DNA from: Homoserinimonas sp. OAct 916 | GTDB taxonomy: Bacteria > Actinomycetota > Actinomycetes > Actinomycetales > Microbacteriaceae | Assembly (NCBI RefSeq): GCF_003260275.1 | Contig: NZ_QJHB01000001.1 | Coordinates: forward strand, 310,001-374,000 | Length of the DNA: 64,000 nt | Direction of reading: 5' to 3' | Part shown: piece by piece, positions 40,115 to 56,070 of the stretch | Numbering within the stretch: position 1 is the first letter of the stretch | Layout: every line of letters begins with the position of its first letter | The notes under the pieces: generated by a model | What the model was told of the DNA's origin: nothing | Seen by the model: the letters and a program-made list of their open reading frames with translations, nothing else | The model's database searches: none | Position numbers and translations under genes: made by a program

Positions 40115-41296
40115 TCAGAGTCGTTCGATGATGGTCGCGTTGGCCATGCCGCCGCCTTCGCACATGGTCTGCAACCCGTATCGGCCCCCGGATGCCTCGA
40201 GTTCGCCGAGCAGGGTCGCCAGCAGTCGGGTGCCCGATGAGCCGAGCGCATGCCCGAGCGCGATCGCACCGCCGCGGGGGTTCATCCTGGCCAGATCGGC
40301 GCCGACCTCTTCGCACCACGCCAACGGGACGGGCGCGAACGCCTCGTTCACCTCGTAGGCGTCCATATCGTCGATCGACAATTCCGCCCTCTGAAACACC
40401 TTCCACGTGGCGGGTATCACCCCGGTGAGCATCAGCATCGGGTCGCTGCCGGTCACGGCGAAGTCGACGAATCGTGCTCGGGCCCTCAACCCGAGGTTGG
40501 CTGCGCGTTCGGCGCTCATGATCAGTGCGGCGGATGCCCCGTCGGTCAGTGGCGACGAGTTTCCCGGGGTGATCTTCCACTCGATCTCCGGGAATCTTTC
40601 GGCGAGCCGGTCGGTGCGAAATGCCGGTTTCAAACCGGATAGCCCCTCAAGCGTTGTTCCTGTCCGAATGGTCTCGTCGACCGTGACGGGGGGCGACGAC
40701 GGCGGAAAGACGGGTACGATCTCCTGCTCGAAGTCTCCCCTGGCGGTGGCAATTCCGGCCAGTTCGTGAGAGCGGGCCGAGTACTCGTCCAGCTGGGAGC
40801 GGCTGAACCCCCACCGGGTTGCGATCAACTCGGCTGACACGCCCTGGTTGACCAGGCCGTCTGGGTAGCGCTTGGCCAGCAGTTCACCGGACGGATCCGC
40901 CCCGGCCAGCGACGACCCGAGAGGCACCCGGCTCATCGATTCCACACCGCAGGCAATCACCACATCGTTGAGTCCGGTCATCACGGTCTGCGCAGCGAAG
41001 AGGGCGGCCTGCTGGCTGGAGCCGCACTGGCGGTCGATGGTGGTGCCGGGAATCTGCTCCGGGAACCCGGCGGACAGAAGCGCGTGCCGGGCGATGTTGA
41101 AGGTCTGTTCGCCCACTTGGGACACACAGCCGGCCATCACATCGTCGACGAGTTCGGGATCGAGATTGTTGCGAGCCACCAGGGCGTCGAGCACCCCCGC
41201 GAGCAGGTCGGTCGGGTGCACCCCCGACAGGGCGCCGCCCGGCTTGCCCCGCCCGGATGGCGTACGAATCACATCGACAATCACGGCTTCGTGCAT
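40115..41296 (-). CDS. Acetyl-CoA acyltransferase (thiolase)
   Basis: Condenses or cleaves acyl-CoAs. Nucleophile Cys91 lies in TIDRQCGSSQQAA; C-terminal GGAIALGHALGSSGTRL holds the catalytic His, and CEGGGMANATIIERL the second Cys. 393 residues. It follows mvaS by 74 bp on the same strand and could supply acetoacetyl-CoA to the mevalonate route, although the RQCGSSQQ form is typical of FadA-like degradative thiolases, so a role in beta-oxidation with the SDR downstream is equally possible. GGGAGG precedes the ATG. Confidence 0.93.
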   Translation of the reverse strand: MHEAVIVDVIRTPSGRGKPGGALSGVHPTDLLAGVLDALVARNNLDPELVDDVMAGCVSQVGEQTFNIARHALLSAGFPEQIPGTTIDRQCGSSQQAALFAAQTVMTGLNDVVIACGVESMSRVPLGSSLAGADPSGELLAKRYPDGLVNQGVSAELIATRWGFSRSQLDEYSARSHELAGIATARGDFEQEIVPVFPPSSPPVTVDETIRTGTTLEGLSGLKPAFRTDRLAERFPEIEWKITPGNSSPLTDGASAALIMSAERAANLGLRARARFVDFAVTGSDPMLMLTGVIPATWKVFQRAELSIDDMDAYEVNEAFAPVPLAWCEEVGADLARMNPRGGAIALGHALGSSGTRLLATLLGELEASGGRYGLQTMCEGGGMANATIIERL

Positions 41297-41370: not shown

Positions 41371-42849
41371 CTAGGCCTGAGCGGCCTCCACGTAACGGTA
41401 GAACTCAATGCCGAGGTCAGCCACGTCGGGCCCGGCTGTGGTGCCCACACGGTCGACCACGAATTCGTCAGACGCCTGTGGGGGCGAAAGCGTCGCGGCG
41501 CGCCCGTCATGCAGTGCCTCGTACTGGTGCTGGTCGAGATCGATGGGGTCGGCCAATGCCTCGGTGAAGTTGATGCGGGATGCCGCCTCGCGCCACCCGT
41601 CGGCCACGCGCATCGGCAGTGCTTCTGCGGCGTCGCCGCTGCCGTAGCCGAGAGCCAACCACTCCTGCCCGGCTACCCGGAGATCGTCGTCGTGGGCTTC
41701 TACGAAGCCGGACGCGATCCACGCCGGAAGTGCCGCGGTGTAGAGGTTGCCGAGGTCACGCATGGCGTTCTCGCCGAGGCCGAGCTTCTTCTCGACGAGG
41801 GTCGCCCAGGTCTCGGTCTTACGCAGGTGCCTGCGAACTTGGCCGGAGAGCGGGAACAGGTCGCTGGTCTCCTCGGAGACGCTCACGCCCTGCCCGCGGA
41901 ACGGTGACGGCGCTGACAGCTCGGCCACCAGGGCGTCGTAGTCGACGCCCGTGGCAACACTCAGTTCGCGCAGGATCTCCTTTCCGCCGTTCACGTCGGC
42001 GGCGAGCGCGAACAGGTAGGTCATCACCCAGCCGATGGCGGGCATCTGCTGGTACGGCCGGTGCATGAACACCGAGTCGACCTCGTCGAAGTAGGCGAGG
42101 TTCGCACCGTCGCGCTTGGCGAGCATGTTCATGACGGCATGGTGCGTCGCGTCGATGTAGCAACTGGTCGAATAGCGGCCGTTGAACACCGGCAGGTCTT
42201 GCATCTGCCCGTCATCGCGCTTGGGCTGGTCCCGGAACCGGGCGAACGGCTTGCGAAAATCGACAGCCCGATAGTCGGAGTCGCTTCCCGCGCCGGCCAG
42301 GTCGATCGTCAGCAGTTTGGGATCTGATTCGAGGAGCATCGCCACGGCGCCGGCACCCTGGGTGGGCTCCCCACTGGAGCCGCGCCGGTACTCGGCGATG
42401 TCGGCCCCGACCACGATCGCCTTGCGGCCGGCACCGTCACTGGACAGGTAGCGCAGCGCCGACTTGACGCCGTACATGGCGCCGAGGCAGGCGTGCTTGA
42501 ACTCGGGAACCTCGCAGTCACGAGCGAGCTCGGGTTTGCCGTTCGCGACCAGGGCGTCATTGATCATCCCCTTGACAATGATCGCACCGGCCGAATTGTC
42601 ACTGGACGACTCGGTGCCGAGGGCGAGATAGCCGACGTCACGCGGGTCGATGTCATAGTCGCGGATGAGCCGCCACACGGCGTTGGCCGCCATCGTATAC
42701 ACGCTCTGGGCAGGCCCGCGCATGCGGAAACTCCTGCCCACCACGTTGCGTACCTTGTCCCACGATTGGTCATTCCAATCACACCACTGCTCCAATTGAA
42801 CACGGTAGGGAGGCAGGTAGAGGGACAGTCCACTTATTCCGGGTACCAA
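41371..42849 (-). CDS. mvaS: Hydroxymethylglutaryl-CoA synthase
   Basis: Joins acetyl-CoA and acetoacetyl-CoA to HMG-CoA. Starting from TTG 42849, catalytic Glu80 (LALGTES), nucleophile Cys121 (KHACLGAMYGVK) and the His motif HRPYQQMP can be seen; the ..GISGLSLYLPPYRV N-terminus matches the family. At 492 residues it is about 100 longer than most bacterial MvaS, mainly in the C-terminal half. The TTG follows GAAAGG at six bases; an in-frame GTG 36 bp upstream is an alternative. It heads a minus-strand unit with the thiolase and SDR. Confidence 0.85.
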   Translation of the reverse strand: MVPGISGLSLYLPPYRVQLEQWCDWNDQSWDKVRNVVGRSFRMRGPAQSVYTMAANAVWRLIRDYDIDPRDVGYLALGTESSSDNSAGAIIVKGMINDALVANGKPELARDCEVPEFKHACLGAMYGVKSALRYLSSDGAGRKAIVVGADIAEYRRGSSGEPTQGAGAVAMLLESDPKLLTIDLAGAGSDSDYRAVDFRKPFARFRDQPKRDDGQMQDLPVFNGRYSTSCYIDATHHAVMNMLAKRDGANLAYFDEVDSVFMHRPYQQMPAIGWVMTYLFALAADVNGGKEILRELSVATGVDYDALVAELSAPSPFRGQGVSVSEETSDLFPLSGQVRRHLRKTETWATLVEKKLGLGENAMRDLGNLYTAALPAWIASGFVEAHDDDLRVAGQEWLALGYGSGDAAEALPMRVADGWREAASRINFTEALADPIDLDQHQYEALHDGRAATLSPPQASDEFVVDRVGTTAGPDVADLGIEFYRYVEAAQA

Positions 42850-42866
42850 GTTTGCCCTTTCCGCAA

Positions 42867-42997
42867 GGGTGCCGATCACTCCACCGGCACCCTGCGATAT
42901 TACCAAGCGAATCCGAGCGGTATGCCGGTGGCGGTTCCGCACATCCTCATCCGGGTGGATTCGATCACGCCGAGTGCTGGCCCTGGTGCCCAGCACT
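42867..42997. other. Two perfect stem-loops in the mvaS / importer gap
   Basis: GGGTGCCG/CGGCACCC (42867-42892) lies in the mvaS leader, 18 bp before its start. AGTGCTGG/CCAGCACT (42973-42997) lies further upstream. The rest of the 346-bp gap holds the divergent promoters, not resolved by eye, and the palindrome at 43161. No gene is visible. Confidence 0.5.
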
Positions 42998-43160
42998 TCG
43001 CACACGTATACCCCTAGCGATATTTCTCTTCACTCGCGTTGCGACGACGCCACCAGGCACCGGGTAAGCTCGGGATTGACCCTCCGGTCTGTCTTGACCG
43101 GTTGCAGCTGACCTCGATTTGGGCGGCAGGTCCTGGCAGGAGCCAGCCCTGGATTCCCCG

Positions 43161-43176
43161 CGTCTGCATGCAGACG
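43161..43176. promoter_or_regulatory. Perfect 16-bp palindrome upstream of the importer operon
   Basis: CGTCTGCATGCAGACG is fully self-complementary and ends 20 bp before the ATG of the substrate-binding gene. Its size and place suit a dimeric repressor. No cobalamin riboswitch box is found in the same leader. Confidence 0.5.
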
Positions 43177-43196
43177 ATTTCCCCCATCGAGGTCAC

Positions 43197-44228
43197 ATGT
43201 ATTTCGTTCCCCACCGAGGTATTTTCGTTGTTGCCATCGCGGCCAGTGCATTGCTGGTCGCAGGATGCAGCGCCGCCGGCGCCGAGCGCGCAGCGGTTGA
43301 ATCCCCGGCGTCCGCCGCCCCGCCGGTCGCAGCCGCGACAACCACGTACCCGGTCACCATCGACAACTGCGGAACCGAGGTGACCTTCACCCAGGCACCG
43401 ACCCGCGTGGTGACCATCAAATCGTCCACCACCGAGTTGCTGGTGGCGCTCGGGCTGACCGACCGCATCATCGGACAGGCATTCCCCGACGGACCGATGC
43501 CCACCGCAGTTGCCGGGCATTCGATCACACCGGTCGAGATTCCGGTGATCAGTGACAAGGTGCCCGGGCAGGAGGCGGTGCTTGACCTTGAGCCCGATCT
43601 GGTCTTCGCCGGCTGGGAATCCAACTTCGGCCCGGAGGGAGCTGGCGACCGCGATGCTCTGCACTCCCTCGGCGTGCTCAGCTACGTGGCGCCCTCCGCG
43701 TGCAAGGAGCCCGGGTACAAACCGGAGAAGCTCAGCTTCGACGATGTGTTCGCCGACGTCAGCGAGGCCGGAGCGATCTTCGATGTGCCGGATGCCGCCA
43801 CCACACTGGTCGCTGATTCGCGTGCGGTCCTCGACGACATCGCCCCGCTGCCCGCGCCGCTCACTGCCCTCTGGTGGTCCTCTGGTGTGGACCTCCCCTA
43901 CGTCGGCGCCGGCACGGGTGCCCCGCAAATGATCATGGAGGCGGCCGGGCTCACGAACGTGGCCGCGCGGGTGGACGACACGTGGACCCAGATGAGCATG
44001 GAGGCGATCGTTGACGCCAACCCACAGGTGATCGTGCTCGTCGACAGCGCCTGGAGCACCGCGGCGAAGAAGAAGGAGTTGCTGGCGGCGAACCCGGCCA
44101 CGGCCGGGCTGGATGCGGTGAAGAACGAACGCTATATCGTTGCACCGTTCGCGGAGACGGAGGCGGGCGTGCGCAACGCCGACCTGGCCGCCCAGATCGC
44201 CGTCGAGGCGGCGAGGTTCACTCCCTGA
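43197..44228 (+). CDS. ABC importer substrate-binding lipoprotein, F420-0 type (putative)
   Basis: Lipoprotein with lipobox LLVAGC (Cys24). The mature protein has the class III (BtuF/FhuD) fold with a long central helix. Features such as TIDNCGTEVTF, VVTIKSSTTELLVALGL, AGWESNF, YVAPSACKEPGY and YVGAGTGAPQMIMEAAGL closely resemble the actinobacterial group named proposed F420-0 transporter binding protein rather than siderophore or B12 receptors. That role was predicted from genome context and has not, to my knowledge, been shown biochemically. The start ATG follows GAGG. Coupled to the permease gene by TGATG. Confidence 0.75.
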   Translation: MYFVPHRGIFVVAIAASALLVAGCSAAGAERAAVESPASAAPPVAAATTTYPVTIDNCGTEVTFTQAPTRVVTIKSSTTELLVALGLTDRIIGQAFPDGPMPTAVAGHSITPVEIPVISDKVPGQEAVLDLEPDLVFAGWESNFGPEGAGDRDALHSLGVLSYVAPSACKEPGYKPEKLSFDDVFADVSEAGAIFDVPDAATTLVADSRAVLDDIAPLPAPLTALWWSSGVDLPYVGAGTGAPQMIMEAAGLTNVAARVDDTWTQMSMEAIVDANPQVIVLVDSAWSTAAKKKELLAANPATAGLDAVKNERYIVAPFAETEAGVRNADLAAQIAVEAARFTP

Positions 44229-45292
44229 TGCAAACGACCGCGCTTCGGCCTGCGGCGGCCGCCGCCTCTGCGCACAGACCCGGGGCTCGCATCCGTGTCC
44301 CGGTGTTGGGTGCAGGGCTCGGCGTGGTGCTCGCCGTATCCGTATTGTTCGCGGTCACGATCGGACCCGCACAGATCACGTTCGGCGAGGCCTGGCAGTC
44401 GGTGTTCGCTCACCTGGGATTTGGTGACCCGGCGCTGTCTCCGCTGCGGGACGGGATCATCTGGCAACTGCGCATGCCACGCATCCTCACCGCCGGGGCG
44501 GTCGGCGCGGGCCTCGCACTGTGCGGCGCGGTGATGCAGGCCCTCACACGCAACCCGCTGGCCGACCCCTACCTGCTCGGCCTCTCTTCGGGCGCTTCAC
44601 TCGGCGCCGTCGGCGTCATCCTGCTCGGTGTGGGCGTGCTCCTCCCGGTCGCGGCCTTCGGCGGGGCCATCGTCGCCCTGGCCGCCACACTGCTGGTGGC
44701 CAGCGCCGCCGGCACCCTCACCCCGACACGCACGATCCTGGCCGGGCTGGCTGTCTCCTCCTTCTTTGGCGCACTCACAAGTCTGGCGATCTTCTGGTCG
44801 GCCACTGGCGACACCTATCGCGAGATCCTCAGTTGGCTGCTCGGCTCCCTCTCTGGTGCCCAATGGTCGTCGGTGGCAATCGCGGGGGCGGCACTCGCGG
44901 TGGTGGGCGTTCCCCTGCTCTTCTCCGGGCGAGTTCTGGATGCGTTCGCCTTCGGCGACACGGCCGCATCCGCCCTGGGGGTGAGCGTGACCCGAACCCG
45001 CTGGATCATGCTCACTGCCACCGCCCTGCTGACCGGAGCCCTGGTGGCCGTCTCCGGTGCGATCGGATTCATCGGCCTGATCCTGCCGCACATGGTGCGG
45101 TTGGTGGTCGGCCGCGGCAACCGCCGCGTGCTGCCGCTTGCGGCCCTCACCGGCGCCATCTTCCTCATCTGGGTCGACACGGCTGCCCGCACGGTGTTCG
45201 ACCCGCGCGAGCTGCCGGTCGGAATCCTCACCGCCGCGATCGGCGCCCCCGTCTTCGCCCTTCTCCTACTGCGTTCCCGGAGTTCATCATGA
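44228..45292 (+). CDS. FecCD-family ABC importer permease (putative F420-0 type)
   Basis: 354 residues with about nine to ten hydrophobic segments. The BtuC/FecCD signature GAVMQALTRNPLADPYLLGLSSGAS is clear, as is AIGFIGLILPHMVRLVVG near the C-terminus. It forms the channel with its own dimer. The gene order binding protein-permease-ATPase and 1-4 bp overlaps on both sides mark a single transporter operon. Confidence 0.9.
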   Translation: MQTTALRPAAAAASAHRPGARIRVPVLGAGLGVVLAVSVLFAVTIGPAQITFGEAWQSVFAHLGFGDPALSPLRDGIIWQLRMPRILTAGAVGAGLALCGAVMQALTRNPLADPYLLGLSSGASLGAVGVILLGVGVLLPVAAFGGAIVALAATLLVASAAGTLTPTRTILAGLAVSSFFGALTSLAIFWSATGDTYREILSWLLGSLSGAQWSSVAIAGAALAVVGVPLLFSGRVLDAFAFGDTAASALGVSVTRTRWIMLTATALLTGALVAVSGAIGFIGLILPHMVRLVVGRGNRRVLPLAALTGAIFLIWVDTAARTVFDPRELPVGILTAAIGAPVFALLLLRSRSSS

Positions 45293-46167
45293 CCCTCTCC
45301 CCCACCCGCCCCGCCCCACAGGCCCGGCCCTCAATACCGCCGGCATTCCCGCAGCCGGTCGCCGCACCGGATGCCGCAGGGCTGAGTGCGCGACGCATCA
45401 GCTTCAGCCGCCAATCCACCCTGATCATCGACGGGGTGGACTGCACCGTCCCCGTGGGCGGGTTCGCCGCAGTGATCGGCCCGAACGGAGCCGGCAAGAG
45501 CACCCTGCTGCAGGTGATCGCCGGTATCCTGCCCGCGTCGGAATCGGCCACCGCGCGCCTGGGCGACACCGATCTTGTGGGCATGCGCCGTCGGGATCGA
45601 GCGCGCATCGTCGCGTTGGCCGAGCAACACTCCGCCGAAGACTCCGGCATGCGGGTTTCCGACGTGGTGATGCTCGGACGCACCCCCCACCTCGGCCGCT
45701 GGCAGGCAGAGGGAGCAGAAGACAAGCGCATCGTGCAGGACGCCCTCGAGGCCGTATCGCTTCGTGAGTTCGCAGATCGGGCCTTCGACACTCTGTCGGG
45801 CGGCGAGCGCCAACGGGTGCACCTGGCCCGGGCACTGGCCCAGCAGCCGCGCCTGCTTCTGCTCGATGAACCCACGAACCACCTGGATGTGCACGCACAG
45901 CTGTCGCTGCTGTCTCTGGTTCGGGCGCAGACGGCCTCAGGTCTCACCGTGGTCGCCGCCCTGCACGACCTGAACATCGCGGTGGCCTACGCCGACCACG
46001 TGATCGTGCTGAAGGCCGGCCGCGTGCGGGCCGCCGGCCCCGCCCAGCAGGTGCTCACTCCCGAACTCATCTGGGACGTGTATGGGGTGCGTGCCGAGAT
46101 CCTGACCAACCCGATCACCGGCCGACCACTGATCGCGTTCGACACCGGCGACCGGCCCGCATCCTGA
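45289..46167 (+). CDS. ABC importer ATPase (putative F420-0 type)
   Basis: 292 residues; Walker A GPNGAGKST, signature LSGGERQRVHLARAL, Walker B LLLLDEPTNHLD and a His switch follow the FecE/BtuD pattern. The ~45-residue Pro/Ala-rich N-terminus before the first strand is unusual. The chosen ATG overlaps the permease stop by 4 bp. A longer open frame upstream is only a shadow of the permease gene. Confidence 0.92.
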   Translation: MTLSPTRPAPQARPSIPPAFPQPVAAPDAAGLSARRISFSRQSTLIIDGVDCTVPVGGFAAVIGPNGAGKSTLLQVIAGILPASESATARLGDTDLVGMRRRDRARIVALAEQHSAEDSGMRVSDVVMLGRTPHLGRWQAEGAEDKRIVQDALEAVSLREFADRAFDTLSGGERQRVHLARALAQQPRLLLLDEPTNHLDVHAQLSLLSLVRAQTASGLTVVAALHDLNIAVAYADHVIVLKAGRVRAAGPAQQVLTPELIWDVYGVRAEILTNPITGRPLIAFDTGDRPAS

Positions 46168-46226
46168 CAAAAGCCGGGCGAGACGGCGGATTCGACGTCG
46201 CGCAGACGACCCGCCACGATGGGGGC

Positions 46227-46835
46227 ATGGAGTTTCAAACAGTGGTGGACCGCCGCCGCATGGTGCGCCGTTACCAGGCCGAGCCGGTCGCCGCCCACAC
46301 CATCGACCGGATGCTGCGCAACGCCGTGCGCGCACCGAATGCAGGGTTCACCCAGGGCTGGGCGTTTCTGGTGCTCGATGAGCCCCGAGACCTGGCCCGC
46401 TTCTGGGCCGCGACCACTCCCCCGGGCACCTCCAGCAACCGCTGGCTCGACGGCATGCGCAGCGCACCGCTGATCATCGTGCCGCTGTCATCGAAAGCGG
46501 CCTATGTGCGCCGCTACGCTGAGTCGGACAAGGGCTGGCCCGCAGATGAGGAGCCGCGCTGGGCGGTGCCGTATTGGCACGTGGACGCCGGAATGGCGGC
46601 CCTTTTGATTCTGCAGACCGCCGTCGACGAGGGTCTCGGCGGCTGTCTCTTCGGGCTGCCACCCGACCGCATCCAGGCGTTCCGGGCCGAGTTCGGTGTT
46701 CCCGACGAATATTCTCCGGTGGGGGCCGTCACGCTCGGCCATCCGGAGGCTTCGGCTCAGGCGTCTGGCTCAGCGACCAGGCGTCCCCGGGTTCCCCTCG
46801 AGGAGCTCGTGCACCGCGGGCAGTGGCGCTCGTAG
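46227..46835 (+). CDS. Nitroreductase-family flavoprotein
   Basis: 202 residues with the FMN-binding nitroreductase pattern: RRRMVRRYQAEPV at the N-terminus, NAVRAPNAGFTQGW, and GMAALLILQTAVDEGLGGCLFGLP. The family reduces nitro groups, flavins or quinones; one branch is fused to CofE in FbiB of the F420 pathway. Its location 60 bp after the proposed F420-0 importer makes a link with deazaflavin metabolism tempting, but the sequence alone does not prove it. Confidence 0.87.
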   Translation: MEFQTVVDRRRMVRRYQAEPVAAHTIDRMLRNAVRAPNAGFTQGWAFLVLDEPRDLARFWAATTPPGTSSNRWLDGMRSAPLIIVPLSSKAAYVRRYAESDKGWPADEEPRWAVPYWHVDAGMAALLILQTAVDEGLGGCLFGLPPDRIQAFRAEFGVPDEYSPVGAVTLGHPEASAQASGSATRRPRVPLEELVHRGQWRS

Positions 46836-46919
46836 CTCGGCGACCGAGGGCTGGCCCGCGACTTTCCCTCAGGAGCCGAAGTGCGACTAAAATATGGTGG
46901 ACGCGATCGGAGCACCACT

Positions 46920-47942
46920 GTGGCAGACACCATCCGCGGTGACCTCACTGCGGTCGCGCGGGCGCACAGCAACATCGCTCTGGTCAAGTACTGGGGAAAG
47001 CGCGACCCCGCCCTGAACACCCCCGCGACCGGCTCGATCTCGGTGACCCTGGATGCGCTGGCCACGGATACCCGCGTTTCGTTCGATCCGTCGCTGGCCG
47101 CCGACCAGTTTCATCTGGACGACAGGCCCGAACCGGCATCCCGGGTGAGTGCCCTGCTCGATGTGGTTCGAAGTCAGGCCGGCCTCACCCTGCATGCCCG
47201 GGTCAACAGCACGAACAACTTTCCGTCGAGCGCGGGTCTTGCCTCTTCGGCATCCGGGTTCGCGGCCCTCGCCCTCGCCGCCAGCCGCGCCGCCGGTCTT
47301 GCCCTGACCCCCAGGGAGCTCTCGGTCCTGGCCAGGCGCGGCTCCGGTTCGGCCGCACGTTCGGTGTTCGGCGGCTACGTGGAGATGCATGCCGGTACCG
47401 CAGCTTCCGGCCTGGACTCCTTCGCCGAGCAGTTGCTCCCCGGGGCGGACTGGCCGCTGTCAGTCGTGGTCGCGATCACTGAGCCCCAGCCGAAACCGGT
47501 CAGCTCCACCGCCGGGATGCTGGGCAGCGCAACGACTTCGCCGTTCTATCCGGGCTGGCTCGAGACTGCCGACCGCGACCTCGACACGATGCGACGGGCC
47601 ATCACGGAGCGTGACTTTCGCACGCTAGGCGAGGAAGCCGAGCACAGCTGCCTGAAACTGCACTCCCTGATGCTGACGACGCGCCCCGCGTTGATCTATT
47701 GGAACGCGGGCACCATGGCCGCCATGCACCGGGTCATCCGCCTGCGTGAAGAAGGGCTGCCCGCTTACTTCACCATCGACGCGGGGCCGCAGGTGAAGGC
47801 TCTCTGCGCCCCCGAAGACGCGTCAGCGGTGGCCGCCGAACTGGGTGCTGTGCCCGGGGTGCGCCAGGTGCGGATCAGTGCCCTCGGCCCGGCCGCACAT
47901 CTCGTGGATGACATGGCCCCAGCTGAACCCGGGAACCCCTGA
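46920..47942 (+). CDS. mvaD: Diphosphomevalonate decarboxylase
   Basis: Last step of the classical mevalonate pathway: ATP-dependent decarboxylation to isopentenyl diphosphate. GHMP-kinase fold with the MDD hallmarks NIALVKYWGKRD (18-29), ATGSISVTLD, NNFPSSAGLASSASGFAALA (99-118) and GSAARSVFGGYVEM. A conserved Asp lies in FTIDAGPQVK. I chose GTG 46920, with GGAG seven bases upstream, giving 340 residues. Its stop shares a base with the next ATG. Confidence 0.94.
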   Translation: MADTIRGDLTAVARAHSNIALVKYWGKRDPALNTPATGSISVTLDALATDTRVSFDPSLAADQFHLDDRPEPASRVSALLDVVRSQAGLTLHARVNSTNNFPSSAGLASSASGFAALALAASRAAGLALTPRELSVLARRGSGSAARSVFGGYVEMHAGTAASGLDSFAEQLLPGADWPLSVVVAITEPQPKPVSSTAGMLGSATTSPFYPGWLETADRDLDTMRRAITERDFRTLGEEAEHSCLKLHSLMLTTRPALIYWNAGTMAAMHRVIRLREEGLPAYFTIDAGPQVKALCAPEDASAVAAELGAVPGVRQVRISALGPAAHLVDDMAPAEPGNP

Positions 47943-48967
47943 TGATCAGGCCGCTCCACTCGCGGGCCCCCGGCAAGCTGTTCCTGATCGGCGAATACGC
48001 CGTGCTCGACGGGGCGCCGGCCCTGCTGACAGCCGTCGACCGGTACGTCGAGGTCACCCTGCGTCCATCGCCCGACGACCTCTGGCGGGTGGCCATGCCC
48101 GGCACCGGTATCGACCCGATCACCCTCGGGGTCGACGGGGGGTTACCGGACGGCCTGAGCCGCCGCCAGCGTGAGTCCCTGCGCGTGTTCGACGCGGTGC
48201 GGGGCGAGGTGCTCTCTGCGGCAACGCGGCCTCCCTCACCGTTGGAAATCTCGATCGACAGCCAAATCTTCCACGAGGGTGGGGCAAAGCTGGGGCTCGG
48301 ATCCAGCGCCGCGGTCGCTGTTGCGCTCACCCATGCCCTAGCCCGCGCCTGTGACCTTCGCCTTGATTCCGGGCACGTGCGAGAGCTCGCAGACACCGCC
48401 CATCGTGCGGCACAGGGCGGAGTCGGCTCGGGTGGCGACGTGGCAGCCTCCAGCCACGGCGGCCTGATCGAATTCACCCCCGGCCGGGATCCTGTTCCCC
48501 TCACCTGGCCCACCGACCTGGAAATGATGGTGGTCACAACCGGGCAGGGCGCAGTCACCACCGATCTGGTCGGCCGGGTGCGCGCCTTACGCGCAGATGA
48601 CCCCACCCGGTATCAGCGACTGATCGACCGTCTGGCTGCCCTGGCACGATCAGCACGGGACACCCTCGGCGACACGGACAGTTTTCTCCGACTCTGCTCG
48701 AACTACTTCGATGCGCTCAGCGAACTCGACGCCGCGACCCGTGCTGGCATCATCACCGACCGCCACCGCGAATTGCACACCCTGGCCGCGGCTCACGGCG
48801 GCGTGTTCAAAACCTCGGGAGCCGGTGGCGGCGATGTCGGTCTGGCGTTCAGCCGCTCCGGCGAACCCGCAACGCGGCTGGCCGACGCCCTGGTCGCGGC
48901 CGGAGCCGATATCATTCCACTGTCCGGCGGAGCGCCGGGCGTTCACCCAGGAGGCGGAGATGGCTGA
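47942..48967 (+). CDS. mvaK2: Phosphomevalonate kinase
   Basis: Phosphorylates mevalonate 5-phosphate to the diphosphate. 341 residues of GHMP kinase: motif 1 RAPGKLFLIGEYAVLDG (8-24), motif 2 KLGLGSSAAVAVALTHAL (GLGSSAA at 118-124), motif 3 KTSGAGGGDVGLAF. APGKLFLxGEYAVLDG together with the phosphate loop is characteristic of PMK rather than mevalonate kinase. Coupled to mvaD by a 1-bp overlap and to the fusion gene by 8 bp. Confidence 0.92.
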   Translation: MIRPLHSRAPGKLFLIGEYAVLDGAPALLTAVDRYVEVTLRPSPDDLWRVAMPGTGIDPITLGVDGGLPDGLSRRQRESLRVFDAVRGEVLSAATRPPSPLEISIDSQIFHEGGAKLGLGSSAAVAVALTHALARACDLRLDSGHVRELADTAHRAAQGGVGSGGDVAASSHGGLIEFTPGRDPVPLTWPTDLEMMVVTTGQGAVTTDLVGRVRALRADDPTRYQRLIDRLAALARSARDTLGDTDSFLRLCSNYFDALSELDAATRAGIITDRHRELHTLAAAHGGVFKTSGAGGGDVGLAFSRSGEPATRLADALVAAGADIIPLSGGAPGVHPGGGDG

Positions 48968-51275
48968 CTCACGCCTACCCAAATTTCACAAACTGTCTGT
49001 CGATGATCGGCTTGCGCTGCTGCGCGACCACGGGGCACTCACACAGGCCGACTACGAGGCGCTGCTCGGCGGGAAGTACGTCTTGACCCCGGAACAGGCC
49101 GACCGCCTGACTGAGAATGTGATCGGCACTTTCTCACTCCCCCTTGGACTCGGTCTCAACTTCCAGCTCAACGACCGTGACTACCTGGTGCCGATGGTGG
49201 TGGAGGAGCCGTCCATCATTGCGGCGGTGAGTTCCGCCGCGAAAGTGGTGCGCCGCGCGGGCGGATTCACCACGTCGTCGGATGAGCCGTTGCTGATCGG
49301 ACAGTTGCAGATCCTCGATCTGGATGAGCCGCTGAAAGCGATCGCTGTTCTCGAAGCGCGCAAAGACGAGGTGATCGCATTGGCGAACAGCGGACACCCG
49401 AACATGGTGCGCCGCGGTGGGGGCGCTCGTGACCTGGAAGTGTTCCGGCACGCGCGAACCGCGAAGAACGGTGATCTGGTGGTCGCCCACCTGGTGGTCG
49501 ACACCCGTGACGCGATGGGTGCCAACCTCGTCAACTCGATGTGTGAGGCGGTGGCACCGCTCGTCGAACAGATCACCGGCGGACGAGTCTTCCTCCGGAT
49601 CCTGTCGAACCTCACCGACCGGGCGCTGGTGCGCGCCCGCGCTATGGTTCCTGCTGCGTTGTTGGAGACCTCCGAATTCAGCGGCGAACGCGTGCGAGAT
49701 GGAATAGTGCTCGCCAGCGAGTTCGCCGAGCTCGACCCGTATCGGGCAACCACCCACAACAAGGGCATCATGAACGGAATCGATGCCGTGGCGCTCGCGA
49801 CCGGCAACGACTGGCGGGCGATCGAGGCCGCCGCACACGCGTTCGCAGCCCGCGACGGACGCTACTCGCCGCTGACCCGTTGGTCAGTGGATGAAACGGG
49901 TGCTCTGGTCGGCGAACTGGAAATGCCGCTCAAGGTGGGCACCGTCGGCGGACAGGTGGAGTCGAATCCCGCGGTGAAGCTGGCACACACGCTGCTCGGG
50001 GTGCGCTCGGCGACCGAACTGGCCGAGGTGATGGCTGCCGTTGGCCTGGCCCAGAATATGGCTGCCCTCCGGGCCCTCTCGACCGAGGGAATCCAGCCCG
50101 GGCACATGCGCCTGCATGCCCGTGCCGTGGCTGTGGCGGCCGGAGCCGACCGCGGAATCTTCGACGAAGTGGTTTCACGGCTGGTCGCCAGCGGTGACAT
50201 CAAGGTGTGGAAGGCCAGGCGCATCATCGACCAGGTGAACCAGGGGCTGCCCCCGACCGGCGCGATCAGCGTCATCGACCGCGCCGCAATCGATGCGGCC
50301 AGGGCGGCCAATGCCAGGTCCGCACCGATTCCCGCGGGCGCCACCGATGCCGACCAGGTCGGCTACGGAAAGATCATCGTGCTCGGGGAGCACGCGGTCG
50401 TCTACGGCGGCCACGCGATCGCGGCCCCGATCAACCTGTCGATTCGGGCGCGAGCAGAAAAACGCCCCTCGGGGCTCAACGTGTCGATCCCCGACTGGGA
50501 CATGCGCGTCGCACCCGATCAGCCGGTCGGAGTCGACACGTTGCAACAGGTGGCGGCTCTCATCACCGGCCGCCTGGGGGTGGCCGATGAGGGCATCCAC
50601 GTGGACGTGTTCGCTCACCTGCCGCGTGCGAGTGGGCTGGGGGCCTCGGCCGCTCTGGCCGTCGCGGTGATCCGCGCGGTGGCTGGCTGCTTCAACATCT
50701 CCCTGTCCGACCGCGCGGTCTCCGAGCTGGCCTACGAGTGCGAACAGATCGTGCACGGCACTCCGAGCGGCATCGACAACACCGTGGCGACGTTCGGTCG
50801 ACCGATCCTGTACCGCAAGGCGGATGCCACCGCCCAGAGTGAGATCCAAGGCATCTACACCCCCCAGCCGATCCCGATCGTGATCGGGCTCACCGGGGTG
50901 AAGTCGTTGACCGCTCACACGGTCGGGCGCGTGCGCGAGGCGTGGAAGCGCAACCCGACCCGCTACGAGCAGATCTTTACACAGATCAACGACCTCGCAC
51001 TGGCTGGAGCAGACGCGATGGAGTCCGGCAACCTGATCGAGCTCGGGGAACTGATGAACATCAACCAGGGCATGCTCAACGCGCTGCAGGTCTCCAGCCC
51101 GGAGCTTGAGGAACTGGTGGACATCGCCCGGCGGGCGGGAGCGCTCGGGGCGAAACTCACGGGCGGCGGTGGCGGCGGCGCGATGATCGCGTTGGCCGGG
51201 CCCGACGGCAGTGAGCCCATTATGAACGCGATGCGCCGGGCCGGCTACCGCAGTTTTCTCACTGAGATCCGCTGA
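48960..51275 (+). CDS. mvaA: HMG-CoA reductase (class II) fused to mevalonate kinase
   Basis: One 771-residue frame contains two complete enzymes. Residues 1-~435 are class II HMG-CoA reductase: Glu83 (VEEPS), the cofactor motif DAMGANL (184-190), Lys268 (NKG), Asp284 (GNDW) and His382 (GHMRLH), in near-register with the P. mevalonii enzyme. Residues ~465-771 are mevalonate kinase: GKIIVLGEHAVVYGG (470-484), PRASGLGASAA, GTPSGIDN with Asp606, and LTGGGGGG (733-740). The linker (~440-464) is Ala-rich. No in-frame ATG, GTG or TTG lies between residue 427 and the kinase's first motif, so separate translation of the kinase is unlikely. AGGAGG precedes the ATG. Confidence 0.93.
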   Translation: MADSRLPKFHKLSVDDRLALLRDHGALTQADYEALLGGKYVLTPEQADRLTENVIGTFSLPLGLGLNFQLNDRDYLVPMVVEEPSIIAAVSSAAKVVRRAGGFTTSSDEPLLIGQLQILDLDEPLKAIAVLEARKDEVIALANSGHPNMVRRGGGARDLEVFRHARTAKNGDLVVAHLVVDTRDAMGANLVNSMCEAVAPLVEQITGGRVFLRILSNLTDRALVRARAMVPAALLETSEFSGERVRDGIVLASEFAELDPYRATTHNKGIMNGIDAVALATGNDWRAIEAAAHAFAARDGRYSPLTRWSVDETGALVGELEMPLKVGTVGGQVESNPAVKLAHTLLGVRSATELAEVMAAVGLAQNMAALRALSTEGIQPGHMRLHARAVAVAAGADRGIFDEVVSRLVASGDIKVWKARRIIDQVNQGLPPTGAISVIDRAAIDAARAANARSAPIPAGATDADQVGYGKIIVLGEHAVVYGGHAIAAPINLSIRARAEKRPSGLNVSIPDWDMRVAPDQPVGVDTLQQVAALITGRLGVADEGIHVDVFAHLPRASGLGASAALAVAVIRAVAGCFNISLSDRAVSELAYECEQIVHGTPSGIDNTVATFGRPILYRKADATAQSEIQGIYTPQPIPIVIGLTGVKSLTAHTVGRVREAWKRNPTRYEQIFTQINDLALAGADAMESGNLIELGELMNINQGMLNALQVSSPELEELVDIARRAGALGAKLTGGGGGGAMIALAGPDGSEPIMNAMRRAGYRSFLTEIR

Positions 51276-51590: not shown

Positions 51591-53078
51591 TCAGGCCGCG
51601 GGGTCAGGCGTCAGCGTGTACTTCGTATACAGGTACTCGTGGATGCCCTCGAGCCCGCCCTCGCGGCCGAGGCCAGACTGCTTAACGCCGCCGAACGGCG
51701 CCGCGGCGTTCGAGATGACGCCCATGTTCAGGCCCATCATGCCGGTCTGCAGCCGGTCGATCATGCGCTGGCCGCGGGAAAGGTTCTCGGTGTAGACATA
51801 GGCGACAAGCCCGTACTCGGTGTCGTTGGCCAGCCTGACCGCCTCGTCCTCGTCGTCGAACGGAACAATCGACAGCACCGGCCCAAAGATCTCCTCACGC
51901 AAGATATCGCTGCCGGCAACAACTCCGGAGATCACGGTCGGCTCGTAGAAGCTGCCCTCCCGGTCAACCTTCGCGCCGCCGGTTCGCAGGGTCGCGCCGC
52001 GTTTCAGCGCATCCTGCACCAGCTCGTCGGCCTTGGCCACCGCCTTGTTGTCGATCAGCGGCCCGATCACGACACCGTCCTCCGTGCCGCGGCCGATCGC
52101 GAACGAGTTCACCCGGTCGGTCACCCGTCGGGCGAACTCGTCGGCGATCGACGAATGCACGATGAACCGGTTCGCTGCGGTGCACGCCTGGCCGATGTTG
52201 CGGAACTTCGCAGCGATGGCACCTTCGACAGCCTTGTCGAGGTCGGCATCCTCGAAGATGACGAACGGCGCGTTTCCGCCCAGCTCCATCGAGGTGCGCA
52301 GTACAACGCGGGCCGACTGCTCGATCAGCCGCTGGCCGACCGGAGTGGAACCGGTGAAGCTCAGCTTGCGCAGCCGCGGGTCGCCGATGATCGGGGCGGA
52401 GACCGCACCGGAGGTCGAGGTGGTGATCACGTTCACCACGCCCTTGGGCAGGCCGACCTCTTCCAACAGTTTCACGAAGTGCAGTGTGGACAGCGGGGTG
52501 AGGGCGGCCGGCTTCACGACCACAGTGCAGCCGGCGGCGAGCGCCGGGGCAATCTTGCGGGTCGCCATGGCCAGCGGGAAGTTCCACGGGGTGATCAGGA
52601 AGCTGGGACCCACCGGGTGCTGCGAGACGATCATGCGGCCGGTGCCCTCGGGGTTGGGTCCGTAACGGCCGGTGATGCGCACAGCCTCCTCGCCGAACCA
52701 GCGCACGAACTCGGAGGCATACTTCACTTCGCCGAGGGACTCGGCCAGCGGCTTGCCCATCTCGACGGTCATCAGCAGTGCGAACTCGTCCTGTCGCTCG
52801 ATCAGCAGGTCGAAAGCGCGTCGCAACAGGTCACCGCGAAAACGCGGCGAGGTGGCAGCCCAGGCGTCTTGCGCCGCGACGGCCGCATCCAGCGCGCCGA
52901 TCCCGTCTTTGATGCTCGCGTCGGCGATCGAGGCGATCACCTGGTTGTTGGACGGGTCACGCACGTCAAGGGTGGCACCAGTTGTCGAATCCACCCATTC
53001 CCCACCGATGAACAGTTGGTGAGGAACACGGGCGAGGAGGTCGGCTTCGGTCAGCACGGTCTCGGTCAGCGCAGTCAT
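51591..53078 (-). CDS. gabD: Succinate-semialdehyde dehydrogenase
   Basis: NAD(P)-dependent oxidation of succinic semialdehyde to succinate. Aldehyde dehydrogenase fold with catalytic Cys299 (NIGQACTAANR), general base Glu265 (MELGGNAPF) and Asn in TPWNFPLAM. The FRNIGQACTAANRF run and 495-residue length are typical of GabD. It is the last gene of the hpa island and would oxidise the succinic semialdehyde released by HpaI, the terminal reaction of the homoprotocatechuate route. Confidence 0.9.
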   Translation of the reverse strand: MTALTETVLTEADLLARVPHQLFIGGEWVDSTTGATLDVRDPSNNQVIASIADASIKDGIGALDAAVAAQDAWAATSPRFRGDLLRRAFDLLIERQDEFALLMTVEMGKPLAESLGEVKYASEFVRWFGEEAVRITGRYGPNPEGTGRMIVSQHPVGPSFLITPWNFPLAMATRKIAPALAAGCTVVVKPAALTPLSTLHFVKLLEEVGLPKGVVNVITTSTSGAVSAPIIGDPRLRKLSFTGSTPVGQRLIEQSARVVLRTSMELGGNAPFVIFEDADLDKAVEGAIAAKFRNIGQACTAANRFIVHSSIADEFARRVTDRVNSFAIGRGTEDGVVIGPLIDNKAVAKADELVQDALKRGATLRTGGAKVDREGSFYEPTVISGVVAGSDILREEIFGPVLSIVPFDDEDEAVRLANDTEYGLVAYVYTENLSRGQRMIDRLQTGMMGLNMGVISNAAAPFGGVKQSGLGREGGLEGIHEYLYTKYTLTPDPAA

Positions 53079-53170
53079 GGGCTCTCTTCTTCTTTTTCTA
53101 CTTGTTTCTCAAGGTTTCGGGCCGGCACCCTCGTGGCGCAGACCGCTCCAGTTTACTCGCCAATACCGGG

Positions 53171-53974
53171 TCAGTACGAGGAGCGCTCGGGGCCTTCATC
53201 CCTCGACAACCAGCGGGCTGTGAGCTCTTCGGATCCGCGTGCCAGCAGCGCGACATCCGCCCCGACAAGCACGAACGAAACGCCCGCGGCCAGATACGCC
53301 TCGGCCGCATCGGGGTCGAAGGCGTTCACCCCGACCGGCTTGCCGACGGCCCGCACCGCGTCGAAGGCCCGAACGACGGCGGCTGTGACCTCCGGGTGCG
53401 TCTGCTGCCCGAGAAGGCCCATGGAGGCGGACAGGTCACTCGGCCCGATGAACACGCCGTCGATCCCGTCGACTGCTGCGATCTCGGACGCGGCCTCCAC
53501 GCCCTGGGAGGTTTCGATCTGCACGAACAGCGAAACGTGTGAGTCGGCGTCGGTGAGGTAGTCGTCGACCCGGTTCCAGCGCGCCGACCGGGCGAGTGCC
53601 GAACCCACACCGCGTCGCCCGCGAGGCGGATATCGCACGGCTTCAACCACGGTGCGGGCGTCATCGGCCGAGGAGATCATCGGTACGAGGATGTTCTGCG
53701 CGCCGAGGTCGAGGACCTGTTTGATGGCCACCACATCACCGATTGGCACGCGCACCACAGGTGTCACGGGGTATGCCGCCACTGCCTGCAGTTGCGTGAG
53801 GGTCGACTCGAGCGTGTTCGGCGAGTGCTCCATGTCGATGAGCAGCCAGTCAAGCCCGGCGCCGGCGCAGATCTCTGCCACCAGAGGGCTGCCTGAACAC
53901 ACCCACATTCCGACCAGCGGGCGGGGCGAGGCGGCCAGTCGATCGCGGAAGGTCGGATCTAGACGAAGCGACAC
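53171..53974 (-). CDS. hpaI: HpcH/HpaI family aldolase
   Basis: Class II pyruvate aldolase that cleaves 4-hydroxy-2-oxoheptanedioate to pyruvate and succinic semialdehyde. Hallmarks: DWLLIDMEHSP with His50, VRVPIGD, ..QIETSQGVEA.. (metal Glu) and FIGPSDLSASMG (metal Asp). I selected GTG 53974, which has GGGGA seven bases upstream and gives 267 residues, the length of HpaI; it overlaps hpaH by 16 bp. Longer frames would include the hpaH 3' end. Confidence 0.9.
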   Translation of the reverse strand: MSLRLDPTFRDRLAASPRPLVGMWVCSGSPLVAEICAGAGLDWLLIDMEHSPNTLESTLTQLQAVAAYPVTPVVRVPIGDVVAIKQVLDLGAQNILVPMISSADDARTVVEAVRYPPRGRRGVGSALARSARWNRVDDYLTDADSHVSLFVQIETSQGVEAASEIAAVDGIDGVFIGPSDLSASMGLLGQQTHPEVTAAVVRAFDAVRAVGKPVGVNAFDPDAAEAYLAAGVSFVLVGADVALLARGSEELTARWLSRDEGPERSSY

Positions 53975-54744
53975 GAGATGGTCCCCAGTTCTCGATAGTC
54001 GGCGAGCACGGTGTCGCCCGGGTGCACCCACATCGGCTGGGTGAACGACCCCGCAAGTACGATCTCACCCGCTTCGAGCCGGTCACCGTGCTGGGCGAGC
54101 TTGTTCGCCAACCAGACGACGCCGCTCGCCGGGTGGTTCAGCACGGCGGCGGCCACACCGGTCTCCTCGATCATCTCGTTGCGGTACAGCAGTGCCGAGA
54201 CCCACCGCAGGTCGACGTCGTCGGGCCGCACCGGATTGCCGCCGTAGACCATGCCGCCGAGCGCGGCGTTGTCACTGATGGTGTCGACAATGGTGCGTCC
54301 TTCCATCTCAACGCGAGAGCTGAGGATCTCCAACGCCGGAACGACGTATTCGGTCGCGCGCAATACATCGAAGACCGTGACATCGGGGCCTTCGACTGGC
54401 TCGGCGAGCACGAATGCCAGCTCGACCTCGATGCGCACGTTCGAGAACCGGGCGTGCTCGATGACCGAGCCGTTCTCGTACACCTGGTCGGCGAAGATCG
54501 CACCGTAGTCCGGTTCGGTGATGCCGGTGGCCACCTGCATCACCTTTGAGGTGAGCCCGATCTTGCGCCCGATCTGCCTGCGGCCGGCCTCGATGCCGCG
54601 CCGGCGCCACTCGTTCTGCACGGCGTAGGAATCCTCCACCGTCATTGACTCGTGGCGCGCTGTCAACAGGGGCACCATGGTGCGATTCCGCTCCGCCTCA
54701 GCCAGCTCATCCGCGATCTGTGCGATGGTCTCCGAATCGAGCAT
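53959..54744 (-). CDS. hpaH: 2-oxo-hept-4-ene-1,7-dioate hydratase
   Basis: Hydrates the product of the decarboxylase/isomerase step. 261-residue FAH-fold hydratase of the HpaH/MhpD group: GRKIGLTSKVMQ, EVELAFVLAEPV with metal Glu residues, and the C-terminal LAGSFTQPMWVHPGDTVLADY. A purine-rich AGGAAGGA lies about eight bases before the ATG. The gene overlaps hpaI. The 168-bp gap upstream of it, before hpaD, is unusually long for this operon and contains short repeats. Confidence 0.92.
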   Translation of the reverse strand: MLDSETIAQIADELAEAERNRTMVPLLTARHESMTVEDSYAVQNEWRRRGIEAGRRQIGRKIGLTSKVMQVATGITEPDYGAIFADQVYENGSVIEHARFSNVRIEVELAFVLAEPVEGPDVTVFDVLRATEYVVPALEILSSRVEMEGRTIVDTISDNAALGGMVYGGNPVRPDDVDLRWVSALLYRNEMIEETGVAAAVLNHPASGVVWLANKLAQHGDRLEAGEIVLAGSFTQPMWVHPGDTVLADYRELGTISCRFV

Positions 54745-54861
54745 CCCATTCTTCCTTCCTACAAACAGCGATCAGGTCTGCATTCCCGGCGGCGTGCTGC
54801 TCATCGCGCCGTACCATTCATTGCGGCGAAGCCGATACTTCTATACAGGCGTGAAGCTTTG

Positions 54862-54896
54862 CCGACGTGCAGATCTACCGACGTGCAGACGTGCAG
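54862..54896. repeat. Short tandem repeats between hpaD and hpaH
   Basis: CCGACGTGCAGA occurs at 54862 and 54878 (16-bp period) and ACGTGCAG then repeats directly (54881, 54889). The 16-bp period matches that of the array at 9.4 kb, although the sequences differ. Confidence 0.7.
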
Positions 54897-54912
54897 TCTC
54901 GCACACTGTGCC

Positions 54913-56070
54913 TCAGAGCTGGTGGCCGAGCTTGTACTCGCCCTGCTTCCACGATGGCAACCCTTCAGGCTCGTCGCCCTTGCGGGTGTACGAGAAACCG
55001 TCGGCGCCTATGGTCACCGCCAGTTCGGAGGTGTCGGTGCGCGCCACCACCGGCTGTGGGTTGCCGTCGAGGTCGAGCACGAGCGAAGCGTCGGTGTACC
55101 AGGAGGGAACCACCGGGTTTCCCCACCAGTCGCGGCGCTGGTTGTCGTGCACGTCCCAGGTGACGACCGGGTTGTCGGGGTCTCCGGTGTAGTAGTCCTG
55201 CGTGTAGATCTCGACTCGGTGCCCATCCGGGTCACGCAGGTAGAGGTAGAACGCGTTCGAGACACCGTGCCGGCCCGGGCCGCGCTCGATCGCATCCGAG
55301 CGGCGGAGCGCCCCGAGCTTGTCGCAGATCGAGATGATGTTGTGCTTCTCGTGGGTGGCGAACGCGATGTGGTGCATGCGCGGGCCGTCGCCGCCGGTCA
55401 TGGCGGTATCGTGCACGGTGGGCTTGCGGCGCATCCACGCGGCATAGGTCGTGCCCGCCTCGTCCTGAATGTCCTCGGTCACCCGAAACCCGAGATCCTC
55501 CATGTACGCGACCGCGCGCGGCACGTTCGGGGTGACCTGGTTGAAGTGGTCCAGCCGCACGAGGGCGCCGGGGGTGTACAGCTCATAGCGCCAGGCGAGG
55601 CGCTCGACGTGCTCGACATCGTGGAAGAACTCGTACGGGAAGCCCAGTGGATCCTCCACACGCACCGAATCGCCGATGCCCCTGGTGAAGCCCTCCGCGC
55701 GCCGTTCGACCCGGCATGCGAGCTCCTCGTAGAAGGCGACCGCCTTGTCGAGATCCTCGGGGGAGCGCACGCGGTACGAGAACGCCGCAACCGCGGCGAC
55801 CGGGCCCTGGCGCAGCACCAGGTTGTGGTGGATGAACTCCTCAAGTGGCCGCAGGTAGATGCTGCTCTCGTCTTCCCAGGTGACCACGAGGTCCAGCACG
55901 TCCACGTAGAACGCGCGCGACGCCGCGAGGTCGGTGACGACGATCTCCATGTAGGCGCAGCGCAGGATGTCGGGAGCTGGGGATTTCGGCGTGGGAATCC
56001 TCGCCGAAGTGGGGATCGGGGTTTCCGCCGTGACGACGGGTTCCGGCGAATCGGGGGTGATGGTGCTCAT
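54913..56070 (-). CDS. hpaD: 3,4-dihydroxyphenylacetate 2,3-dioxygenase
   Basis: Extradiol ring cleavage of homoprotocatechuate, VOC fold. It closely follows the Brevibacterium fuscum enzyme as I know it: metal ligands His175, His234 and Glu287, plus active-site His220 and Tyr277, align with its His155, His214, Glu267, His200 and Tyr257 at a constant offset of 20. Long shared runs include LDHFNQVTPNVPR, GPGRHGVSNAFYLY and IYTQDYYTGDPDNP. The 20-residue offset is a Pro/Thr-rich N-terminal extension. 385 residues. Preceded by AAGGA at seven bases. Confidence 0.96.
   Translation of the reverse strand: MSTITPDSPEPVVTAETPIPTSARIPTPKSPAPDILRCAYMEIVVTDLAASRAFYVDVLDLVVTWEDESSIYLRPLEEFIHHNLVLRQGPVAAVAAFSYRVRSPEDLDKAVAFYEELACRVERRAEGFTRGIGDSVRVEDPLGFPYEFFHDVEHVERLAWRYELYTPGALVRLDHFNQVTPNVPRAVAYMEDLGFRVTEDIQDEAGTTYAAWMRRKPTVHDTAMTGGDGPRMHHIAFATHEKHNIISICDKLGALRRSDAIERGPGRHGVSNAFYLYLRDPDGHRVEIYTQDYYTGDPDNPVVTWDVHDNQRRDWWGNPVVPSWYTDASLVLDLDGNPQPVVARTDTSELAVTIGADGFSYTRKGDEPEGLPSWKQGEYKLGHQL

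What the first reader, a model, noticed from the sequence alone, without database searches (positions are those of the whole stretch)
48960..51275. Single-polypeptide fusion of HMG-CoA reductase and mevalonate kinase
Both halves keep all expected catalytic residues (Glu83, Lys268, Asp284, His382; kinase motifs 1-3). There is no stop and no in-frame ATG, GTG or TTG between residue 427 and the kinase's first motif, so the kinase cannot easily be made alone. The two enzymes catalyse consecutive steps (HMG-CoA to mevalonate to phosphomevalonate), so the fusion could channel mevalonate. The known bacterial fusion in this pathway that I recall (enterococcal MvaE) joins thiolase to reductase, a different pairing.
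Basis: partly seen in the sequence, partly recalled or inferred. Interest (0 to 1): 0.8.

Follow-up and report, generated by a model that had tools for sequence, protein, structure and literature searches.

The report
Fused HMG-CoA reductase and mevalonate kinase
One bacterial gene encodes two successive enzymes of the mevalonate route to isoprenoids joined by a floppy tether; the joined form is not a one-off but looks like an old, single-origin fusion shared by scattered members of several bacterial phyla.

Summary
Window 48960-51275 (+) is one 771-codon frame: a complete class II HMG-CoA reductase (residues 1 to about 427), a 42-residue linker and a complete mevalonate kinase (470-771); both halves pass curated family cut-offs. 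It ends an MDD-PMK-[HMGR-MK] run; HMG-CoA synthase and a thiolase lie on the other strand of the window. The own genome shows no other HMGR or clear MK, no DXR match, and a type I IDI, so this protein probably carries its isoprenoid supply. It is neither an error nor unique: 43 of the 80 best public loci have both halves in one frame, in Actinomycetota, Proteobacteria, Acidobacteriota, Calditrichota and one Planctomycetota MAG; in Calditrichota 35 of 40 genomes have a junction-spanning frame. Trees of each half put all sampled fusions in one clade, nearest to Myxococcota with separate HMGR and MK, in one case same-frame neighbours split by one stop. Ten searches of an open-access library listed no paper that I could see describing it. 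Bifunctionality is very likely but unassayed; channelling is untested, and monomer AlphaFold models give no confident interface.

The parts
48960..51275 (+). HMGR-MK fusion gene, 771 aa
48960..50240 (+). class II HMG-CoA reductase part (residues 1-427), ending in the C-terminal helical region that carries H382
   Evidence: TIGR00532 411 bits; PDB 1qax (P. mevalonii HMGR) E 3e-129 over residues 3-425; Foldseek 9dcp_A 54% identity over 424 columns
50241..50366 (+). linker, residues 428-469; no ATG/GTG/TTG codon; pLDDT below 50 at 432-462
50367..51272 (+). mevalonate kinase part (residues 470-771)
   Evidence: TIGR00549 237 bits; PDB 2hfs (L. major MK), 6mde and 4hac (M. mazei MK)
47942..48967 (+). 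phosphomevalonate kinase-like GHMP kinase, overlapping the fusion by 8 bp
   Evidence: TIGR01220 143 bits, below its cut-off of 166; a homologue is found with MDD at 46 of 53 other fusion loci
46881..47942 (+). diphosphomevalonate decarboxylase (exact start uncertain)
   Evidence: TIGR01240 280 bits, over its cut-off of 171
41371..43005 (-). HMG-CoA synthase of a divergent, long form (start uncertain)
   Evidence: PF01154 51 bits, cut-off 25; TIGR01835 155 bits, below its cut-off of 360; 47-72% identical homologues at 15 of 53 other fusion loci, many of which have short flanks
40115..41296 (-). thiolase, probable acetyl-CoA acetyltransferase
   Evidence: Thiolase_N/C; TIGR01930 415 bits, cut-off 241

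Best explanation
The gene encodes a bifunctional biosynthetic enzyme. The N-terminal class II HMG-CoA reductase reduces HMG-CoA to mevalonate, and the C-terminal GHMP-type mevalonate kinase, held on a flexible tether behind the C-terminal part of the reductase, phosphorylates it to mevalonate 5-phosphate. The pair feeds the neighbouring PMK and MDD. The likely gain is fixed 1:1 production of the two enzymes and prompt trapping of a leaky intermediate made by a reversible reductase, by local concentration rather than through a rigid tunnel. Shown by sequence: one frame, both complete domains with catalytic residues, operon context, one clade for each half. Inferred: both activities, use for biosynthesis rather than breakdown, kinetic benefit. 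Cofactor preference is undetermined.
For: Curated families over cut-off for both halves. Catalytic positions checked are invariant in 49 of 49 fusions. Homologues of both MDD and PMK lie at 46 of 53 other fusion loci, and of HMGS at 15. Own genome: one HMGR; besides the fusion the protein matches only the PMK and a short stretch (64 aa, E 1.5e-6) of a 479-aa frame elsewhere; no DXR match; type I IDI over cut-off. So the mevalonate route is probably its isoprenoid source. DXR was over its cut-off in 12 of the 50 fusion genomes given. Position 146, Asp in the NAD-bound P. mevalonii and Delftia enzymes, is His in 48 of 49 fusions, and Tyr in the S. pneumoniae enzyme solved with NADPH: weakly against a P. 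mevalonii-like enzyme. Distances of the two halves covary (Mantel r 0.85, 0 of 2000 permutations as high), as expected if they travel as one unit. Linkers are variable in length and rich in A, G, P, T and S; pLDDT is below 50 at 432-462 in the window's protein.
Against: No activity, expression or mass data. NCBIfam names the reductase family 'degradative' (a name, not a test). Asp146 is also found in separate HMGRs of Chloroflexota whose genomes carry an MK over cut-off, so that residue does not tell breakdown from synthesis. Covariation of halves is also expected from shared ancestry alone. 5 of 53 fusion loci show neither MDD nor PMK (for L046 the contig is short). DXR absence rests on one model; other MEP enzymes were not searched, and most genomes have no stated completeness. 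G313, G138 and G068 (98-100% complete) carry the fusion and DXR together, so the fusion is not always the only route.
Confidence: 0.9

Rival explanations
1. Assembly or sequencing error joining two adjacent genes.
For: Adjacent separate HMGR and MK genes do exist elsewhere: Bacillaceae loci L078-L082 and L085-L087, and Myxococcaceae L070.
Against: Single-frame fusions in 43 of 80 loci, full-length in 9 of 369 genomes of the class of Dyella and 32 of 40 Calditrichota genomes.
Confidence: 0.01
2. The fusion truly channels mevalonate: a fixed arrangement of the two active sites passes it directly.
For: Consecutive steps joined; the kinase sits directly behind the C-terminal (flap, recalled) region of the reductase; the fusion is retained over large distances.
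Against: pTM 0.59 and 0.65 for a long- and a short-linker member, linker of 12-90 residues. AlphaFold was run as a monomer, while both parent enzymes are oligomers (recalled), so an interface between subunits is not excluded.
Confidence: 0.15
3. The fusion serves only co-expression: cleavage after translation makes separate enzymes.
For: The linker is low-confidence and variable, hence perhaps protease-accessible.
Against: No stop and no usable internal start in the window's copy; the single-frame form is kept in the sampled fusion clade. Cleavage itself cannot be tested here.
Confidence: 0.08
4. The reductase half works in the breakdown direction, using mevalonate as carbon source as in P. 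mevalonii.
For: Best PDB match is P. mevalonii HMGR and the NCBIfam name is 'degradative'.
Against: A mevalonate kinase is attached, PMK, MDD and HMGS are neighbours, and no DXR match in the own genome. The His146 argument is weak, see above.
Confidence: 0.03

Closest known systems
MvaE of enterococci (acetoacetyl-CoA thiolase-HMG-CoA reductase fusion; recalled)
   Same: A class II HMGR fused to the enzyme of another mevalonate-pathway step.
   Different: Thiolase on the N side there; here a kinase on the C side, the immediately following step. No thiolase domain in this protein.
Stand-alone class II HMGR (P. mevalonii 1qax, S. pneumoniae 5wpj)
   Same: Nearly the whole domain and the catalytic residues align.
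   Different: Those chains end at about 426-428 residues; here the chain continues into linker and kinase. His146 instead of Asp146 of P. mevalonii.
Mevalonate kinases of Leishmania major (2hfs) and Methanosarcina mazei (6mde, 4hac)
   Same: Whole kinase fold and motifs.
   Different: Free-standing enzymes of 303-332 aa.
IspDF of the MEP pathway
   Same: A natural two-enzyme fusion in the other isoprenoid route (named in a passage of PMC13001223).
   Different: Joins non-consecutive steps (same passage); here the steps are consecutive.
Adjacent HMGR|MK genes of Myxococcaceae MAG L070
   Same: With L094/L179, the nearest separate relatives of both halves in the trees; HMGR and MK in the same frame with one stop between.
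   Different: Two genes, MK probably starting at its own GTG.

Membership tests
Class II HMG-CoA reductase | Curated family score | tested here: met
   TIGR00532 411 bits against cut-off 260
Class II HMG-CoA reductase | Catalytic Glu83, Lys267, Asp283, His381 (P. mevalonii numbering; roles recalled) | tested here: met
   E83, K268, D284, H382 align with 1qax and are invariant in 49 of 49 fusions
Class II HMG-CoA reductase | Reductase activity | not testable with these tools
   no assay
Degradative NADH-type HMGR (P. mevalonii) | Asp at position 146 (role as NAD determinant recalled) | tested here: not met
   His146 in the window and in 48 of 49 fusions; but Asp146 is also in HMGRs of MK-bearing Chloroflexota, so the feature is a poor marker
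Mevalonate kinase (GHMP) | Curated family score | tested here: met
   TIGR00549 237 bits against cut-off 163
Mevalonate kinase (GHMP) | Motif 1 Lys/Glu-His, motif 2 GLGxS, catalytic Asp, glycine-rich motif 3 (motifs recalled) | tested here: met
   K471, E477, H478, G559/G561/S563, D606, G737-G740 invariant in 49 of 49
Mevalonate kinase (GHMP) | Kinase activity on mevalonate | not testable with these tools
   no assay
MvaE-type thiolase-HMGR fusion (recalled) | Thiolase domain in the same polypeptide | tested here: not met
   No thiolase domain in 48960-51272; separate thiolase gene at 40115-41296

The most novel reading that the evidence does not exclude
An ancient HMGR-MK enzyme, made once by loss of a stop between neighbouring genes in a lineage near Myxococcota, nearly universal in Calditrichota and moved as a cassette between phyla, works as a flap-tethered two-step catalyst: opening and closing of the reductase's C-terminal region, to which the kinase is attached, hands mevalonate to the kinase within an oligomer, so that these bacteria have a built-in HMGR-MK metabolon.
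Probability: 0.15. Interest if true: 0.75.

Novelty: new variant of a known kind. Interest (0 to 1): 0.5.

Why it matters
HMGR is a main control point of the mevalonate pathway, and engineers often add or balance HMGR and MK (established knowledge). A natural fusion of the two, kept in distant phyla with linkers from 12 to 90 residues, offers ready-made parts and a clean test of whether proximity of these two steps matters. Its near-universal presence in the sampled Calditrichota and patchy presence elsewhere also makes it a marker of lateral spread of the mevalonate route in bacteria.

Tried and rejected
Uniqueness of the fusion: rejected. Apparent full-length hits in Bacillaceae (L078-L082, L085-L087) are two adjacent genes, so tblastn coverage alone was not trusted. 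Spread on sequenced plasmids: of 53 plasmid records with a match, none covers 80% of the query in one place. Rigid channel: two AlphaFold monomer models give no confident domain arrangement. Literature search with the prefix 'Caldit': 59 papers, 20 listed, none by its title on Calditrichota. The paper PMC6107057 (origin of isoprenoid biosynthesis) is not held, so I cannot say whether it mentions the fusion. The own-genome IDI region was looked at only as open frames and by BLAST to the window's pathway proteins, without a hit. In one search the linker of L014 was mis-set by a motif search and that of L068 came out negative; one search gives alignment-based lengths.

Rows dropped: of 54 loci with both halves in one frame, L001 (duplicate of L002), L013 and L069 (cut by contig ends) were left out; L009 and L011 (near relatives of other rows) were also left out of alignment A1, where the window stands for L002, giving 49 rows. 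Trees used 95 of 136 MK rows and 94 of 145 HMGR rows, thinned by hand; the HMGR set still held two identical pairs. The bootstrap MK tree used 55 rows, without the separate kinases L182-L187 among others; no bootstrap tree was made for the HMGR half. One search examined 50 fusion genomes, not all of those now known.
Full report
WHAT IS THERE. Window 48960-51275 (+) is a single ATG-started frame of 771 codons. Pfam finds HMG-CoA_red at 14-387 and the two GHMP kinase domains at 529-612 and 685-763. NCBIfam gives TIGR00532 at 411 bits (cut-off 260) and TIGR00549 mevalonate kinase at 237 bits (cut-off 163). The reductase part aligns with P. mevalonii HMGR 1qax over residues 3-425, the kinase part with L. 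major MK 2hfs and M. mazei MK. The AlphaFold2 model (mean pLDDT 87) has both domains well formed and a linker below pLDDT 50 at 432-462; Foldseek returns HMGR structures at E down to 1.7e-43 and MK structures from E 3.3e-22.

CONTEXT. The fusion overlaps a PMK-like gene (47942-48967) by 8 bp, itself preceded by MDD (46881-47942). On the other strand lie an HMG-CoA synthase (41371-43005; 155 bits against a cut-off of 360 for TIGR01835) and a thiolase (40115-41296). In the window HMGS and MDD are separated by a siderophore-type ABC transporter and a nitroreductase. Downstream, on the opposite strand, are an aldehyde dehydrogenase, an HpcH/HpaI aldolase and a glyoxalase-family gene. The own genome (3.64 Mb, completeness 100) has one HMGR; besides the fusion the protein finds only the PMK and a 64-residue stretch of a 479-aa frame. 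It has a type I IDI over cut-off on another contig, no type II IDI over cut-off and no DXR match. By established pathway knowledge this is a complete mevalonate route and probably the only isoprenoid source; other MEP enzymes were not searched.

HOW WIDESPREAD. Fifteen others show an HMGR without the kinase (48-53% identity), and many show an MK-like match alone (about 31-42% for the better ones). The family is probably Microbacteriaceae, since its loci nest with Cryobacterium records; the tool does not name it. Their record titles name Cryobacterium, Nakamurella, Salinisphaera, Dyella, Rhodanobacteraceae, Woeseiaceae, Pseudomonadales, other Gammaproteobacteria, a Rhodospirillaceae MAG, Acidobacteriota, Calditrichota and a Planctomycetota MAG; many are MAGs, where single placements may be binning errors. 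In 369 genomes of Dyella's class (the centre included), 9 have full-length fusions and one more (G617) a truncated one. In 396 genomes of the own phylum, 3 have it (own, G891, G913). In the phylum of L039 (a Calditrichota MAG by title), 32 of 40 genomes have a full-length single-frame match and 3 more (G1216, G1210, G1203) a cut frame that crosses the junction; 3 have only partial matches at contig ends and 2 none. No plasmid record covers 80% of the protein.

ORIGIN. Trees of the MK half (47 fusions, 48 separate) and the HMGR half (47 fusions, 47 separate) each put all sampled fusions on one side of one branch (SH-aLRT 95 and 100). A bootstrap tree of 55 MK rows gives 93/96, with one clade in 92% of 200 bootstrap trees and not in the rest. 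So one origin fits both halves, for the separate proteins sampled. In both, the nearest outsiders are Myxococcota (L070; L094 with its genome's MK L179). Their MK branches are long and the tool warns of long branches and uneven letter make-up, so this placing is provisional. L070 has HMGR and MK in the same frame, separated by a single TGA and one codon before a GTG that probably starts the MK: the simplest precursor one could draw, or a later split. His-Pro at 146-147 is in 78 of 81 fusion HMGRs, and in only 3 of 64 separate rows, those of L070 (twice, also as L181) and L094. Within fusions, the Microbacteriaceae are sister to Salinisphaera-type Proteobacteria in both trees, and another actinobacterial fusion (L139) groups with Dyella in the two larger trees (support 92 each) but weakly in the bootstrap tree (46/77). 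This points to transfer of the fused gene between phyla. Homologues of both MDD and PMK are at 46 of 53 other fusion loci, PMK alone at 2, neither at 5, so a cassette probably moved. Divergence of the two halves is correlated (Mantel r 0.85); shared ancestry alone would give this too.

HOW IT WORKS. Catalytic positions checked in both enzymes are invariant in 49 of 49 aligned fusions, so both activities are probably kept. Position 146, Asp in the NAD-complexed P. mevalonii and Delftia HMGRs, is His in 48 of 49 fusions; the S. pneumoniae enzyme solved with NADPH has Tyr there. This is weak evidence: Asp146 is also present in separate HMGRs of Chloroflexota whose genomes hold an MK over cut-off. 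The PMK/MDD/HMGS neighbours are the better argument for biosynthesis, despite the family label 'degradative'. The linker runs from 12 to 90 residues (median 23), rich in Ala, Gly, Pro, Thr and Ser. Even for L072, with 12 residues, the whole-chain confidence stays modest (pTM 0.65). I therefore favour a flexible tether giving equal amounts and local capture of mevalonate, not a fixed tunnel. That the reductase's last helices form a mobile flap is recalled, not tested.

PATHWAY DEPENDENCE. Of 50 fusion genomes examined, DXR is over cut-off in 12, of which 10 are Cryobacterium records or genomes of the own family; the other 38 have no match, but most have no stated completeness. So many, not all, carriers may depend on the mevalonate route.

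LITERATURE. Ten searches of the held open-access library listed no paper that, by title, start of abstract or term counts, describes an HMGR-MK fusion; held more papers than they listed. I looked at passages only, in PMC13001223 and PMC13412983; none of those shown mentions it. Subscription journals and protein databases were not searched, so prior notice, for instance as a domain architecture, is quite possible.

VERDICT. A real, intact, conserved two-enzyme fusion: each part is ordinary, the joining is a new variant of a known kind (pathway-enzyme fusion). Interest moderate: surprising in breadth and age, testable, but without evidence of new chemistry.

Noticed in passing
41371-43005 (-): HMG-CoA synthase scores far below the bacterial equivalog cut-off (155 of 360 bits) and is long (544-codon frame); homologues at 47-72% identity lie at 15 of 53 other fusion loci, in actinobacterial and proteobacterial records, so it may be a distinct HMGS subfamily travelling with the fusion.
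   Followed up: partly
own genome G000: No DXR match, although DXR is found in 5 of the 10 other fusion-bearing genomes of the family given; possibly an actinobacterium that lost the MEP route and relies on mevalonate.
   Followed up: partly
43119-46835 (+): A siderophore-type ABC transporter (binding protein, FecCD permease, ATPase) and a nitroreductase lie between HMGS and MDD, which are close neighbours in Cryobacterium loci such as L048.
   Followed up: no
51591-56070 (-): Aldehyde dehydrogenase, HpcH/HpaI aldolase and glyoxalase-family genes: looks like an aromatic (homoprotocatechuate-type) degradation cluster, by recall of the families.
   Followed up: no
L074 (record titled Endozoicomonas sp. 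G2_2): Its fusion groups with Salinisphaera in both trees; either transfer or a misnamed record.
   Followed up: no
L068 and L036: L068 lacks residues at the end of the HMGR part, and L036 has a two-residue gap shortly after the invariant K268; real variants or sequence errors.
   Followed up: no
L070 4560-5000: Myxococcaceae MAG with HMGR and MK in the same frame separated by one TGA: possible relic of the pre-fusion state or a secondary split.
   Followed up: partly
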